The notes under the pieces: model-generated
Databases searched by the model: none
Seen by the model: the letters and a program-made list of their open reading frames with translations, nothing else
What the model was told of the DNA's origin: nothing
Position numbers and translations under genes: made by a program
Shown: positions 42,561-64,000 of the stretch, in pieces
Layout of the letters: every line of letters begins with the position of its first letter
Position numbering within the stretch: position 1 is the stretch's first letter
DNA from: Polytrichum commune
Taxonomy: Eukaryota; Streptophyta; Polytrichopsida; Polytrichales; Polytrichaceae
Length of the DNA stretch: 64,000 nucleotides
Direction: 5' to 3'
Assembly (NCBI GenBank): GCA_950295325.1
Contig: OX485803.1
Span: 4,400,001 to 4,464,000 of the forward strand

Positions 42561-44120
42561 GTGAAGCGGGTGACAGACACCTGTCTCACATTCCGCAAAA
42601 CCCTATGGGAACGAAGAAAGAGCTCGGAGTATCTCGTCATTTGTTACAAATTTCAACACACATGCACAAAAGTTCCTTCTTTTTCGACACCTCGAGACTT
42701 GAATGTCGAATTCCCAACAAGGCTAGGGTTGGATATGATGATAGTATATACACATAGCCCTCCTCTCTATTATACCAAAACCCTCACCCTTTTCACCAAC
42801 TCGCTCAGAACATCTTTGATACTGGAGATACATGACCCATTTCTTTGCTACTTCGCCCCTTCAAACATGCAAAGAAACTGGACGCAATTTCCCACCTAGG
42901 GATTGAGTAGCTTGCAATAACTGGGGTTCGGTGTTACACGATCATACCAAAGTATAACAAAGTTTCTTCCTAAATGCACAAAGTTTTTTGTCGAATTCCC
43001 AAACAAGGCTAGGGTTAAATGAGTTTACATACTCAAAATCGTCGCCTCCATTTTATCAAAACCCTCACTTTTATCACTGACTCACTCAAAACCTCATTGT
43101 TACTGAAGAGAACAACCAACTCAAAGATACTTCGCCCTTCTAACATGCACAGAAACTGGAAACAATTTTCCACCTTGGCGATTGAGGAGGTTGCAATAAC
43201 TGCGGTTCGGTGTGCTCGGATCAAACCGAAGAATAACCAAAACCACCCAAATGTACAAAGTTTCTTCTTGTTCGAATGTCAAATTCCCTACAAGGCTAGG
43301 GTTGGATATTAATGAGTCCATGGCCCTCGCCTCCATTACACCAAAACCCACACTTCAATCACCGACTCGCTCAGCACTTTTCCTTCGTTCCTGGAGACAA
43401 AACCCAACTCGAACCTACTTCACACCTTCTAACATGCACAGGAACTGAACACAATTTTCCACCTCCGGGTATGAGTAGCTTTAGTAGCTTGAGATAACTG
43501 CAGTTCGGTGCTACACGATCGTACTAAAGAATAGAAAAACCAACGAAATGCACAAAGTTTCTTGTCGAATTCCCAACAAGGCTAGGGTTAACTGAGTGTA
43601 CATACACACACACACATCCCTCGCCTCCATTTTACAGAAACCCTCACTTATATCACCCACTCACTCAGAACTTCTTTGATACTGTAGAAACCATAACCCA
43701 CTTCTTTGCAACTTCGCCCTTCTAACATGCACAGAAACTGGACACAATTTTCCAACTTGAGGATTGAGTAGTTTGCAATAACTGCGGTTCCGTGTGACAC
43801 GATCGTACCAAAGAATAACAAAGTTTCATGTCGAATTCCCAACAAGGCTAGGGGTGGATATGATGACAGTATATACACACATGGCCCTCGCCTTTTTTTC
43901 ACCAAAACCCTCGCTTTTATCACCGACTCGCTCAGAACTTCTTCTTTGATACTGAAGACGTAACCCAACTCGAAGCTACATACTCTGCCCCTTCTAACAA
44001 GCACAGAAACTGGAAACGATTTCCCACCTTGAGGATTGAGTAGCTTGCAATACCATGGTTCTGAGTGCTCGGTGAGTTACACGATCAAGCCAAAGAAATA
44101 GCAAAAACCACCCAAATGTC
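42560..44120 (+). repeat. Tandem array, ~286-bp unit, about five copies
   Basis: The block AAGGCTAGGG(T) occurs at 42719, 43005, 43292, 43578 and 43854, giving spacings of 286, 287, 286 and 276. Each unit also carries TCGAATTCCC, CTCGCCTCCATT-like, CACTCACTCAGAACT-like, ACATGCACAGAAACTGGA and GATTGAGTAG...TTGCAATAACTG in the same order. A partial copy ends near 44120. Open frames on both strands are by-products of the array. Confidence 0.9.
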
Positions 44121-52380: not shown

Positions 52381-53920
52381 ATGTGCCCACCAGGGCATAA
52401 AACTGACACCATGGGGGGTGTATTTTGCTTCCTAGAGTGTCCTAGGACACCCAAATCTCAAACAGGGTGTCCCCGAGGACACCCAAAAATCCTACAAGGG
52501 TGTCTTTTTTACACCCAAAAAAAATTCAGGGTGTCCCCTGTACTTGTAGGGCCTATCAGCGTATATGTTTGACAAAGTTTTTGCAAGTTTTTCTTTTTGA
52601 CACGCAAAAACTTGCACAAAAAAAAAATGCACGTCAATTGACACGCACATTCTAGAAATTGACACGTACTGTGACTTGTGAAGAAAAAAATCACACGTCA
52701 ATTGACACACTAGAAATTGAAATGACATGTATTACTTGAGTACTATAAAGTGCAGCTCAAGTATCCGGAAAACATAACCCATAACAGTAGGAGAACTTCC
52801 TACACTCACTCGCATACTTAAGTTCAACTTTGCTCTTGCAATTTCCTTTGTAACCGGGAGCTAGGACGGTGAATGGAGAGCGAGACTAACTAGGAACATG
52901 GCGAGGCAAATGTTTCTATCACCGTGGTGCCTCCACATCCTCCACTCAATATGAGTTTTTTCTTGCTTCCAACCAATGTGAGTTTTTCTTGCTTTTCAAC
53001 CAAAACTGTTTTGAGCAATTCCCTTTGAATCACATGCTTCTACATATCTGTTGATATTCTGACAGTGGGTGATAGATCCAGACTTTCGAGCTTAGTATTC
53101 CTTGTCCATTCTTTCTTTGCAAGTTTGACTTAATTGCACAGGCCTATGTGGTTAAGGTGATAGAATCATTGCAGCAACGATTTCCTAATTTGAAGCTCTT
53201 CAATGCAGCTAAGCTATTTAGCCCTGTCTGTTTTTCAACAGACTTGACACTTCTTCATCGAAATGCTCATTTATGGCTTCAGAGTTTCATTGACCACTTT
53301 TGCACAAATGGAGGGAATCTTTTTGATGAGCGTGGTTTAAAATCAGAGCTTCGAGGTTTTTTGGATACACTTCATATTTCATGTGGTGGTCTTAAAATGC
53401 ACCAAGCTTGGATGGTTTATTCTTCCAATTTGGACTATGTTGGAAGATATCCTCATATGACAAAGTTGTGGCAAGTTGTTCTTGTAATCCCTGCTAGTAC
53501 AGCTTCTTGTGAGAGAGGATTTTCTATTCAAAATCATATTAAATCTACTTTACGGTGTAGTTTGGTATTAGAGACTTTGGAAGCACAAATGAGAGTTGCA
53601 ATGGCTAAAATCCCCATAGAGGCCATTGACTTTGAACAAGTATGGGTAAAGTGGTGTGCTATGAAAGGCCGCCGCTTGTAGGTTTGATTTGCATTGCAAG
53701 TTATGATATGTAGTGATTTTTTTGATTTTTAATTGAAAATTTGAAATTATATTATATATTTTTCAAAATTGTACCTATTCTGACAAAAAAAAATTTAAGA
53801 GAAATTTATGAGGACACCCAAAAATTGGAGCAGAGTGTCCTTGGGACACCCAAAATTTGGGACAGGGTGTCCCTTGGAAATTTGGCTAGGGTGTCAAATT
53901 TATGGCCTGGTGCCCACTAA
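52381..53920 (+). mobile_element. hAT-superfamily relic (~1.5 kb)
   Basis: The left terminus GTGCCCACCAGGGCATAAA and the inverse of the right terminus GTGGGCACCAGGCCATAAA match over about 28 bp with five mismatches, followed by GACACC in both. Flanking 8-mers AGACTTTA (52373-52380) and ACACTTGA (53921-53928) agree at six positions, consistent with an aged 8-bp hAT target duplication. GACACCC-type subterminal repeats cluster near both ends (52435-52540 and 53810-53900). Most of the transposase is missing. Confidence 0.75.
53143..53681 (+). CDS. hAT transposase C-terminal exon (partial, with dimerisation domain)
   Basis: An open frame follows a plausible 3' splice site (TTAATTGCACAG just before 53143) and encodes about 179 residues. 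The hallmark C-terminal hAT dimerisation region is clear: PHMTKLWQVVLVIPASTAS, then CERGFS, then LVLETLEAQMRV. It ends KGRRL before the stop. The frame is intact, but the catalytic core and zinc-finger exons are absent, so this is a deletion derivative. It resembles the ZNF862-like hAT branch found in plants. Expression is doubtful. Confidence 0.75.
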
Positions 53921-57400: not shown

Positions 57401-58562
57401 GGGGTTTTGGATCCCATGGTTTCATGTGCTTTACTTTATGGATAACTCTATTAGTGTAGTACCCCTCTTTATACCATCATTCACAAATCGGATATTCCAA
57501 TACACGCACGACTTGGCCCGGGACCCAATCCACTACCTCTGCATGCTTTGAATCTACACATTATTTGTAGTGGCCGGCACCTACAAGGCCACCTTACCGT
57601 AGGGTAGTTAACCGTCTCCACAATTATTTCCACGTGAAGTAGTAGTAGCACGCTATGGGGCGTATTAGTCTAATAAGTTAAGGTGGGTATCTTAATGAAT
57701 TCCAATGTGTGTCCCCCTCCCTCTCTTATCTCCAAACCTTACTTATCATCACCATCAATGAGCCCTTGAAGGGCCTTCACTACAAAATCATCGAAGTAGA
57801 ATCCTCCTTGATCTTGGTACTCGGAATATTTAATCCTTTTCTACATTTACTTTGTTGTAGTTTAGGGTGGGTTTACATTAGGGTCCATGTCCAAGAACTT
57901 GGGGTTCATAACACAAGTAGACTATGTTTTCGGATCCGAGCTTGAGTTGAAATGAGAAGATTGGTTTTTCAAATTAGGAGGAGTTCTTTTCTTCAGTGAG
58001 GAGTCGAACCTACCAATATTTGACAGGGAAATAAAGTCCCACTAGTATCACTCCAATCTTTTGAAGTTCATTTGACACCGCAATCAACCTCAAATTGTTA
58101 TAGACACAATACCGTAGCACCATAGCTGGTTCGTGCACCTCAAAACGAATATTTATATATTTATTGGAAAATAAGGTTCGTCAACTAACAATATAATTTA
58201 TGAAATTTCATCACTCTTATGATTTAAAAATATTTAATTCGTTTTTTTGGTAAGGTCCAACAATATTGGAAGTAGGTTGTTGTTTTTTTCATTCATTCGT
58301 GGTGGTTTCTTGGCCTTAAACCTAAGTATCCACCTTAACCTTACTTAGTGTGACTCTTGTTTGTCTTTGCACAGTGTATGCGTTAGGTCTTTTGTATGTA
58401 TTTGCACTTTGACATGTGTGAGAAGAGTGTTAGAAATGGCACCAAAACAACGATGGGTTGATTTTGCTTTTATCCCTATCAACAAGGAGGAGAAGGGAGA
58501 TGGATATAGAAAGAGAGTTTGCCGCTTTGAGTGAGCAGGGCACCGAGTCATTAACGCGTTAG
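57401..58562. other. Unresolved sequence
   Basis: No exon, RNA gene or clear repeat was recognised up to the solo LTR. Confidence 0.3.
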
Positions 58563-58567
58563 CATGC

Positions 58568-59372
58568 TATTACGAACCTCTCACCGGTTGGCAATTTGTG
58601 TCTTGACCACAAAATCTCAAAGTAAAGAATTGAAACCAACACCAATTTTATTTCTTCCTCTAAGTACAAACCGCAACCAAATAAAGTTTGGTCAACGAAG
58701 CTCTACCACCCGACCATAGGAGAGAGACAAAAAAGATATCCTCTCTCCTCCCCCGAGCTTCCTTTTATGCCGAAGCACTACTTTTACTTTCTATATTTAC
58801 ATATAGTAAAAGTATTCTATTCATAGCTCTATCTCATAGTTCTACTATGAATCTTCTATCTATGGTTCTTTTAGAACCTTCTTTCATCTCTTGTCTCAAT
58901 TCCATTCTTCCAATTGGAACTGTCTAATTCCAATTGGATTCATCCATTCTTCTTTCTAGTTGGAACTGTCTAATTCCAACTAAATACATTCATCCTTCAT
59001 TCCAGTTGGAACTGTCTAATTCCAACTTGGTTCATCCAACCTTTCTCTTAGTTGGAATTGTCTAATTCCAACTAGTCAATCTTCTAGTTGGAACTGTCTA
59101 ATTCCAACTAGCTTTATCCATGGAGTGGTCTAACTCCTGTGCACCTCATCGAGAGTTGTCTAACTCATGTGCACTTGTTCTCACTTGGAATGGTCTAGTT
59201 CCAATGCACTAAATGCGGAGCTGTCTAACTCCAGTGCACATGTTGTCAATCTGGAGTTGTCTTACTCCTTTCCATTCATCCTCAACCGAGAGTTGTCTAG
59301 CTCTCATCTTTTTCTGCTTACACACTGGCACATGTAGTTAGAATATTCCTTAATAATTCTAGTTACATTACA
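58568..59372 (-). mobile_element. Probable solo LTR (~805 bp, copia-like)
   Basis: Perfect 5-bp direct repeats CATGC flank it (58563-58567 and 59373-59377). Read on the minus strand it begins TGTAATG and ends GGTTCGTAATA. The start resembles Ty1/copia LTRs (AGAATTATTAAGGAATATTC). A dyad array fills the first half (U3-like), a TATA-like CATAAAAGG lies at 58761-58769, and an AATAAAAT polyadenylation-like signal lies about 110 nt later near 58648. No internal retroelement sequence is adjacent. The TG...TA ends are non-canonical, which lowers certainty. Confidence 0.6.
58905..59315. repeat. Array of about eleven short dyad (hairpin) repeats
   Basis: Units share a (C/G)TGTCTA-like or TGGTCTA spacer flanked by complementary arms. 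The first five have TTGGAA/TTCCAA arms. Later units have GGAGT/ACTCC, GAGTT/AACTC, TTGGAA-type again, GGAG/CTCC and GAGAG/CTCTC arms. Spacing is 35-50 bp with linkers such as TTCATCC or GTGCAC. Arms change sequence but stay complementary. It lies in the U3-like part of the LTR. Confidence 0.85.
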
Positions 59373-59377
59373 CATGC

Positions 59378-60715
59378 AACCTCTTATGGCACGTTGATGT
59401 GGTTGGAGCTTAGAAGAGTCCAAAATTTTCATTTGTTAGTTTTTTTCCCAATATAAATTTTCACTTATTCATTTGATTAGGTTCATAATTTCCGATTTTT
59501 TTCGTTTTAATATTTGAGAATTATTTTTGCACAAACCAGCTATGGTGCTACGGTAGTGAATCATGTTCTTATAGTGGACGGATGAAAAATACACTTAGAT
59601 TTGATGATTCCCTCTTGCCGTTGGAGTCGTCTTGAAAGCTAAATTGGTGGGGAGATTCATTCTTGTCCCCTTGTTGGTCTCTCCGCTAGAATGGGGTCTT
59701 CGCTCTGCTAATCAATCTTTAAATTGCATGAACAACATAAGTTAGTGGAGGGTTGTTAGCAAAGTTCCAATGCCACTACATTGTTTATGGTGTTTAGTGT
59801 CACATACATTATTTGCAAAGGCCCTAAACTAGATGCCTATAGGTCTTAAAGTATCATGTCCGTTAACTACCAATAGAGTATTATTTGGCAAACATAAATG
59901 ATTTCTTAAAGTGAACAAAGACTTACATTATGACATTTAGCATAGCATATTGGGATATTTGAGATGTCGGTTTTTCATTTTAAAATGCAAGGGGAAGGTA
60001 TTATTGAGCATACTAATGGCAAGTGTCATGTGTTTCCATTTTAGTATGCAAGAGGAAGATATTCTTGAGCATACTAATGTCAAGTGTCATTTGTGTACAC
60101 TAAGTCAACTTGTAGATCATTATGTAACATAGGTATGCGCCTCATAACACTACTTAACATACTCATGCTAAGATATTAGTAAGCGCACTTGAATGCCAAG
60201 TTCCATGAGTGGGTATTAATGATGAAGTTGTTGATCATTAGTGTAACCTAAGATACGCCTCAAAACAAGGTAAGTGACACTATAACGCATGTGACATTAA
60301 ATATCATAAAGAATGTAGTACATGAATAAGTTAGTGATGCTCCCAAATTGTCACTTTAAGACAAAATGAATGCTAATGAATTGTCAGAAGAAGAAGAAGA
60401 AGATATCGACATGAATATGAGCCCATCGTACTTCTCCTTATCATGTTTACCATGCTACAATATAAGGTGTATGACCTTCCTTCCAGAAGATGGGCCCTAT
60501 GGGTCCAAGTTAAATATATCATTTGGTAAGCGGTGGGTTATTGGGGGGGGGGGGGGGGGTATCAATGCTTGTTTTTGGTCTAATTTTCATTTGTTGAGGA
60601 TAAGTATGTAAGATATTTTATAACATTTTCATGCAAGGATTTCATATAGTTATAGATTGTGGCTTTAGGAATATTTAAGTTTTCTAGTTTTGCTAGTGAG
60701 TACTCGTAAATGGCC
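59378..60715. other. Unresolved sequence with short local duplications
   Basis: A ~70-bp tandem similarity occurs near 59970-60110 (AAATGCAAG(G)GGAAG..ATT.TTGAGCATACTAATG...AAGTGTCAT). A 17-G run is at 60543-60559. A small plus-strand frame at 60366-60611 spans the G-run and shows no known domain. Confidence 0.35.
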
Positions 60716-62929: not shown

Positions 62930-64000
62930 CCAACATTTCACTTAATGTTGCCCCAGAAAAGTTGACTCGATGTCCTTATGCAAAATAAAAATTCAACATT
63001 TTGAGGACCTAAATTTGGTTTCAAATTTCAACATAATTTTAAAATTTCTTTACAAATGGTCCCAACGAAACTTTACAACAAATTAGATTTTTTTTTTAAT
63101 GAAACCCAAAAGATTCAAATTCTTTCCTTAATGCCAAGGATACAATTGATAATCAAACGTGGTTTGACATTTAAGTCAATTTCCTCAGTTGCTTTGGAAA
63201 CAACCTCCACAACACTCCGTATGGCTTTGGAAACCACCTTCAATAAAAATCTAAAGGAACCAAAACTTTCAAACTAGGTGCCGATGATATAAATATCAAC
63301 ATTTTGTTAAGTATTAATTTCGTTCAAATTTATGTTATTTTTCTCAAATAGTTTACAAATGACCCTCGAATTGTTTTACATAGCTTTGGAAGTGACTTTG
63401 AAAAATATCCAAAAAAGTGAAATTTGTACACTTGGATCCGAGGGTACAAATATCAACATTTGGAGAATTTTAATTTTGGACATAATTTCTTTTATTTTCT
63501 TAAATGTATTGCAAATGGCCCTTACAATGCTTCCTAGGGCTTTGAAAGTGACTCTAAAAAATCTCCAAAGAATTGAAAATTTTCCCCTTGATTTTGAGGG
63601 TTCAAATATCAAAATTTTGGTAACTTTTAATTTAGTCATCATTTCATTTTTTTTTCTCAAATGCTTCACAAATGACCCTTGCATCGCTTCCCAAGGCTTT
63701 TGAAACGATTTTGAAAAATCTCCAAAAATCTGAAAGTTGCACCCTTAGATCCAAGGGTACATATATAAGCATTTCGGTAACTTTAAAGTTGGCTCAAAAT
63801 TCCTTTTATTTCTCTCAAATGCTTATAGTTGGGCCTCACATTGTGTTTGAGGGCTTTCAAGGTGAGCTTGAAAACATCTCCAAAGAATAGAATTTGTAAA
63901 CTCGGTGCCAAGAATACAAACATCCACATTGTGGAACCTTGAGGTTGGCTCCATTTTTTTTTTTAACTTTTTGCTTAAATATTTTGGAGATGGTGTTGTA
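62930..64000 (+). repeat. Satellite-like tandem array, ~157-bp unit (continues beyond window)
   Basis: The (A)CAAATG(A/G)(C/T)CC-type block recurs at 63052, about 63208, 63355, 63511, 63668, about 63825 and about 63981, i.e. every 147-157 bp. Each unit also contains GCTTTGGAA-like, AAAAATCTCCAAA-like and GGTACAAATATCAACATTT-like blocks in order. Units differ by 20-30%. Open frames on both strands are by-products. The right end is cut by the window. Confidence 0.85.

What the first reader, a model, noticed from the sequence alone, without database searches (positions are those of the whole stretch)
58568..59372. Solo LTR whose U3-like half is an array of dyads with covarying arms
About eleven hairpins keep a TGTCTA-type centre while their arms change (TTGGAA, GGAGT, GAGTT, GAGAG) and remain complementary. 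Covariation implies selection or a mechanism maintaining pairing rather than sequence. It could act as RNA structure, as a dimeric factor-binding array in an LTR enhancer, or arise by templated repair of hairpins. I know of no standard element class with this signature.
Basis: partly seen in the sequence, partly recalled or inferred. Interest (0 to 1): 0.75.

Follow-up and report, generated by a model that had tools for sequence, protein, structure and literature searches.

The report
Hairpin array in a retrotransposon's promoter
A lone end-piece of a recently active retrotransposon carries, just ahead of its likely promoter, eleven short mirror-symmetric repeats whose two arms largely match each other although the arm sequence differs from repeat to repeat, most likely a stack of duplicated control sites.

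Summary
Window 58568-59372 is exactly one 805-bp solo LTR with CATGC target duplications; sense is the minus strand. It belongs to a recently active Ty3/Gypsy chromodomain family: 8 of 9 full-length LTR pairs checked are identical, the ninth differs at one base. Eleven dyads with an invariant AGAC (GTCT) centre lie in U3, upstream of a TATA-like box.

Dyads far exceed chance (13 centres in the LTR against 1.4 in shuffles). Arm covariation among the eleven units is real but modest (4 of 500 shuffles reach it) and recurs among V-type units across the family.

The inference is only partly supported. At orthologous dyads in 66 distinct LTRs, 21 of 24 double-change cells come from one pair. Three mismatches persist in 77-78 of 79 copies, though others became pairs in one subfamily. 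Tree-mapped changes to G-U and to A-C are about equally common.

I read it as a tandemly duplicated cis-regulatory array of dyad sites, reshuffled by unit duplication. RNA hairpins in the 3' UTR are the more novel rival. Ten loci of relatives (integrase about 50-70% identical) showed no such array. New variant of a known kind.

The parts
58568..59372 (-). solo LTR, 805 bp, ends TG...TA in sense
   Evidence: flanked by CATGC on both sides; 41 matching LTR pieces listed (itself included), 22 of them in 11 pairs about 5.3 kb apart
58563..58567 (.). target-site duplication CATGC, left copy
59373..59377 (.). target-site duplication CATGC, right copy
59287..59306 (-). dyad U1 (GAGAG/CTCTC type)
59253..59268 (-). 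dyad U2 (GGAGT/ACTCC)
59217..59232 (-). dyad U3 (GGAGTT/AGCTCC)
59185..59204 (-). dyad U4 (TTGGAA/TTCCAA)
59153..59166 (-). dyad U5 (GAGTT/AACTC)
59122..59137 (-). dyad U6 (GGAGT/ACTCC)
59084..59111 (-). dyad V1 (CTAGTTGGAA type, long arms)
59049..59074 (-). dyad V2
59004..59027 (-). dyad V3
58956..58983 (-). dyad V4
58909..58938 (-). dyad V5 (TCCAATTGGAA type)
58868..58882 (-). heat-shock-element-like site (GAAnnTTCnnGAA in 56 of 81 LTRs; third module altered in this copy)
58762..58769 (-). TATA-like CATAAAAG, putative U3 promoter
   Evidence: sequence; inference
58647..58652 (-). AATAAA, putative polyadenylation signal
   Evidence: sequence; inference

Best explanation
The array is the U3 cis-regulatory (enhancer) region of a young Ty3/Gypsy chromodomain retrotransposon. 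It is a stack of dyad-symmetric sites with an AGAC centre, interleaved with E-box-like sites and placed ahead of the TATA-like box. It grew by tandem duplication of unlike palindromic units (starts 30-36 bp apart for U-type, 36-46 bp for V-type) and is reshuffled by unit gain, loss and recombination. The arms match because a two-fold symmetric binding site has two like half-sites; the arms differ between units because the units descend from a few different palindromes. Shown: location, strand, family, youth, array, unit turnover, mild constraint on stems. Inferred: enhancer function, a dimeric DNA-binding factor, and the descent of the units.
For: All eleven units lie upstream of a TATA-like box, on the strand fixed by the primer-binding site, polypurine tract and integrase frame. 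Unit number varies: 3 to 7 V-filter hits per LTR in 81 LTRs, the filter also catching some U-type dyads. One whole dyad present in other subfamilies is missing from the window's subfamily. V units with the left outer arm of one type and the right outer arm of another occur (5 of 292 join CCAAT with ACTAG or TTAGT with ATTGG). Stem columns vary less than spacers (mean diversity 0.064 against 0.108; permutation p = 0.023). Some mismatches are kept as sequence: U5 pair 6 T.T in 78 of 79, U6 pair 1 T.C in 78 of 79, U1 pair 2 C.A in 77 of 79. Changes from Watson-Crick to G-U and to A-C are about equally common in sense (internal 7 and 7, terminal 28 and 22), as expected if DNA rather than RNA is read. 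Three CATGTG/CACATG sites lie in the window's U part against 0.34 expected (33 of 5000 shuffles reach it). Tnt1's U3 BII boxes bind defence-induced factors (PMC3316501, passages).
Against: The centre is invariant in the eleven units, and a dimer's spacer usually is not. V arms pair over 10-13 bp and outer pairs covary too, more than one dimer would need. Other mismatches are not fixed: between L003 and the young L091-type, four mismatched positions of the former (U2 pairs 1 and 7, U4 pair 2, U6 pair 7) are Watson-Crick in the latter, which leans to pairing. One-sided changes within stems among L003, L091 and L069 are five of G-U type to one of A-C type by my count (five to two if U5 pair 7, outside its stem, is counted), a small lean to RNA that is not significant. 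The core is not significantly less diverse than spacers (p = 0.056). No known factor was matched; no expression or binding data.
Confidence: 0.48

Rival explanations
1. RNA hairpins: in the genomic RNA the 3' U3 lies in the 3' UTR right after the integrase stop. The dyads fold into a row of hairpins with an AGAC loop and variable stems, acting in export, stability, packaging or 3'-end formation.
For: Sense fold z -9.25, 0 of 100 shuffles. Constant loop with variable but mostly paired stems. Outer V pairs covary. Integrase frame ends 14 nt before the LTR, so U3 would be 3' UTR. One shared compensatory change at an orthologous pair. Four mismatches of one young type are pairs in another, and one-sided stem changes between young types lean to G-U.
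Against: The antisense strand folds equally well. No clear excess of G-U over A-C changes on the tree, 7 and 7 internal, 28 and 22 terminal. Only 1 double change among 24 internal changes. Three conserved mismatches. No Rfam family reached its gathering score in the window.
Confidence: 0.25
2. By-product of mutation: palindromes are kept and multiplied by slippage and template switching during reverse transcription or by hairpin-templated repair, without function.
For: Units gained, lost and recombined. No such array in ten loci of relatives with integrase matches of about 50-70% identity, so elements of this kind do without it.
Against: Templated repair should remove standing mismatches, yet three persist in 77-78 of 79 copies. 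On terminal branches changes that restore a pair are few: 8 from G-U and 1 from A-C to Watson-Crick, against 68 away from Watson-Crick. Stems vary less than spacers. The array is kept in two subfamilies that both have near-identical copies.
Confidence: 0.25

Closest known systems
Tnt1 BII boxes (tobacco Ty1/Copia U3 enhancer repeats)
   Same: repeated boxes in U3; BII boxes bind defence-induced factors (PMC3316501, passages); tandem repeats in Tnt1 U3 (PMC3601003, passages)
   Different: Tnt1 is Copia (recalled); here 11 dyads with constant centre and variable matching arms in a chromodomain Gypsy element; no binding data here; no sequence comparison was made
ONSEN-type heat-responsive LTR (Copia)
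   Same: three-module heat-shock element in the LTR of 56 of 81 copies
   Different: it lies outside the AGAC dyads; 25 of 81 lack it, the window copy among them; heat response untested; ONSEN features recalled
SIRE-type U3/PPT stem-loops
   Same: inverted repeats near the 5' end of U3 and the PPT (PMC3601003, passages)
   Different: there a single stem-loop exposing the PPT; here an array further inside U3

Membership tests
Ty3/Gypsy with chromodomain (chromovirus) | integrase with C-terminal chromodomain | tested here: met
   Integrase_H2C2 1.6e-21 and Chromo PF00385 2e-07, both above cut-off; rve 2e-05 below its cut-off
Ty3/Gypsy with chromodomain (chromovirus) | Ty3-type gag and aspartic protease | tested here: met
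   Retrotrans_gag 4.3e-16, Ty3_capsid 3.2e-14, RVP_2 1.5e-13 in the 5' piece
Ty3/Gypsy with chromodomain (chromovirus) | reverse transcriptase and RNase H lying before integrase | not tested
   that middle stretch was not scanned
Solo LTR | single LTR with matching target-site duplication and no internal part | tested here: met
   CATGC both sides
U3 tandem-repeat enhancer (Tnt1 BII-like) | repeated units in U3 upstream of promoter | tested here: met
   the promoter itself is inferred from a TATA-like box
U3 tandem-repeat enhancer (Tnt1 BII-like) | units bind factors and raise transcription | not testable with these tools
   needs reporter and binding assays
Conserved RNA structure | compensatory changes at orthologous pairs above control | tested here: inconclusive
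   covariation score 0.082 against 0.068 (0 of 500 shuffles), double-change cells 24 against 8.6 (0 of 500), but 21 of 24 on one pair and 22 with the partner slid by +1; pairs with double change 4 against 1.9 (31 of 500); tree: 1 of 24 internal changes
Conserved RNA structure | strand bias for G-U over A-C changes | tested here: not met
   7 and 7 internal, 28 and 22 terminal; a small non-significant lean to G-U among three young types
Known Rfam family | match at gathering score | tested here: not met
   0 matches in the window

The most novel reading that the evidence does not exclude
A row of structured RNA elements with a constant AGAC loop and freely evolving stems sits in the 3' UTR of an active chromodomain retrotransposon. 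It is recognised as hairpins by a host or element protein, and is gained and lost unit by unit.
Probability: 0.22. Interest if true: 0.65.

Novelty: new variant of a known kind. Interest (0 to 1): 0.36.

Why it matters
Repeated U3 enhancers are known, but repeats in which the centre is fixed and the arms change together are unusual to my knowledge. The family is recent (8 of 9 LTR pairs checked are identical), and relatives without such an array sit in the same genome (ten loci), so the array's effect on transcription or RNA could be tested directly. It also shows how 'covariation' between tandem repeats can come from duplicating unlike palindromes and need not mean conserved RNA.

Tried and rejected
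Rfam search of the region and of the window: nothing at gathering score; all 12 rows of the E-value list for 58000-60000 have E of 0.5 or more and scores well below the families' cut-offs. Heat-shock phase in the V dyads: the GAA to TTC distance is 11, out of the 5-bp phase, so the dyads themselves are not heat-shock elements (by eye). Auxin-response (TGTC) reading: two of eleven units have GGTCT instead, so not followed (motif recalled). Templated arm repair: not supported, see rivals. Literature: the searches listed no paper whose title or shown abstract describes such an array (one search showed 12 of 50); one search was on heat response (12 of 19 shown). Only passages of PMC3316501, PMC3601003 and PMC11656987 were seen.

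Choice of rows: one search used 81 LTRs (window plus 80 loci). It left out the second LTR of most young pairs and near-identical copies, but holds both LTRs of some elements (L047 and L048, and by their places also L027 and L082, L029 and L074, L030 and L056). One search used 66, after dropping 5 short ones (L030, L057, L061, L089, L090) and identical rows. For V units I first hand-picked 17, which left out decayed ones; I then repeated with all 33 V types seen in at least 2 LTRs (39 listed, 6 U-type removed), with a similar result (score 0.182 against 0.130, then 0.175 against 0.134). The tree is midpoint-rooted, so directions of change are uncertain. The first report text said eleven array-free loci and 8 of 8 LTR pairs; on recount these are ten, and 8 of 9.

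Full report
What it is. The window lies in an unnamed eukaryotic genome of 408 Mb in 64 contigs. The stretch 58568-59372 is one LTR of 805 bp, flanked by CATGC on both sides. A search with it lists 41 matching pieces at 89-100% identity, itself included (40 of 689 candidates scored, so a lower bound); 22 of these form 11 pairs about 5.3 kb apart. I compared the two LTRs of 9 such pairs: 8 are identical, with the same 5 bases at both outer ends; the ninth, L047 and L048, differs at one base. Two further single LTRs with matching flanks were seen, L008 and L018. The family has moved very recently.

Strand and class. Inside full-length copies, one LTR is followed by the reverse complement of a purine-rich tract and the other is preceded by the reverse complement of TGGTATCAGAGC, which I recognise from memory as the initiator-tRNA-Met type primer site. 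Sense is therefore the window's minus strand. The integrase frame stops 14 nt before the 3' LTR and carries Integrase_H2C2 and Chromo domains; the 5' piece carries gag and aspartic protease. This is a Ty3/Gypsy element with a chromodomain. Reverse transcriptase was not scanned.

The array. In sense, eleven dyads centred on AGAC lie at LTR positions about 67-464, ahead of a TATA-like CATAAAAG at 604. Six short ones (U1-U6) are followed by five long ones (V1-V5, arms up to 13 bp). Dyads exceed chance: 13 centres in the LTR against 1.43, never more than 6 in 300 shuffles. Fold z-scores are near -9.3 on both strands.

Covariation between units. Over 10 pairs and 11 units the covariation score is 0.307 against 0.210 in shuffles (4 of 500 reach it); 80.9% of cells pair against 72.1% (0 of 500). 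The number of pair types is ordinary (270 of 500). Half of the 10 double-change cells are one switch, A-T in 6 units against G-C in 5. For all 33 V types found in at least two LTRs the score is 0.175 against 0.134 (0 of 500), with three outer pairs changing on both sides, while the number of such pairs is not unusual (323 of 500). Tandem units are related, so these shuffles overstate significance.

Covariation between copies. I took 66 distinct LTRs from several subfamilies and tested orthologous U1-U6. Cells paired: 95.4% against 94.7% shuffled (0 of 500). Double-change cells: 24 against 8.6 (0 of 500), but 21 of the 24 belong to one pair, U1 pair 6; the control slid by one column gives 22. 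On a tree of 80 LTRs (1 of 81 dropped as too short) I mapped pair changes: internal branches show 7 changes from Watson-Crick to G-U, 7 to A-C and 1 double Watson-Crick change among 24 in all; terminal branches show 28 and 22, with 2 doubles. Roughly equal G-U and A-C counts argue against strong selection on pairing in sense RNA. Among three young representatives (L003, L091, L069) the one-sided changes within stems lean to G-U (five to one by my count), too few to decide.

Mismatches. Three persist: U5 pair 6 T.T 78 of 79, U6 pair 1 T.C 78 of 79, U1 pair 2 C.A 77 of 79. Others do not: U4 pair 2 is C.A in 34 and T-A in 43 of 78, U2 pair 1 is A.A in 51 and T-A in 26 of 78, and four positions mismatched in L003 are paired in L091. 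So over the life of the family the units are kept mostly as sequences, with some drift towards better pairing in one subfamily.

Constraint and turnover. Stem columns are less diverse than spacers, 0.064 against 0.108 (p = 0.023); the core is 0.056 (p = 0.056). V-filter hits per LTR range from 3 to 7 in 81 LTRs, with some U-type dyads caught. The window's subfamily lacks a whole dyad present in others. Five of 292 units join the left outer arm CCAAT to ACTAG or TTAGT to ATTGG, as recombination through the shared core would give. Downstream of integrase matches of about 50-70% identity I examined ten loci, L034-L042 and L044: none shows AGAC-centred dyads in rows in its first 700 bases (stems of 6 bp or more), and their fold z-scores run from -3.1 to +2.4. 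L043, a 72% match, has the array.

Reading. I favour a duplicated cis-regulatory array of dyad sites. It is in U3 ahead of the likely promoter, its units turn over, and its sequences are largely kept. The window's U part holds three E-box-like sites (0.34 expected; 33 of 5000 shuffles reach it). A three-module heat-shock-like site lies nearer the promoter in 56 of 81 copies (71 of 5000 shuffles of one LTR have one). Tnt1 is the precedent: its U3 BII boxes bind defence-induced factors (PMC3316501, passages). Against this, the constant centre and the long covarying V arms look more like hairpins. RNA structure and a mutational by-product each keep about a quarter of my belief.

Noticed in passing
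window 58107-58137 and 59528-59558: The solo LTR sits inside a repeat of about 640 bp with 31-bp terminal inverted repeats (94% complementary); 40 long matches at 89-100% identity, itself included, were listed for its left part. Looks like a non-autonomous DNA transposon.
   Followed up: partly
LTR sense 491-505 (window 58868-58882) and related loci: Three-module heat-shock element GAAnnTTCnnGAA in 56 of 81 LTRs. The string GGTTCTAGAAG that holds two of its modules is in 19 of 19 loci L002-L020 but is altered in the window copy.
   Followed up: partly
L034, L035, L037, L039 and others, first 40 bases in sense: A 7-bp dyad GTCATTG-NGGA-CAATGAC at the end of the integrase frame just before the polypurine tract is kept in four array-free relatives, shorter (6 bp) in L038, L040 and L042, and not seen in L036.
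   Followed up: no
L047, L048: The bases beside these older LTRs suggest that they end in TG...CA, so the TG...TA ends of the window's type would be a recent change.
   Followed up: no
L025, L026: One young subfamily has about 250 extra bases near the start of U3, with further dyads.
   Followed up: no
L013: Two LTRs in inverted orientation 45 bases apart on C2, a rearranged or nested insertion.
   Followed up: no
window 42704-43822 and 63291-63824: Tandem arrays of 279-bp (3.9 copies) and 157-bp (3.4 copies) units.
   Followed up: no
window 53148-53681: Open frame with hAT C-terminal dimerisation domain, PF05699, 2.4e-08.
   Followed up: no
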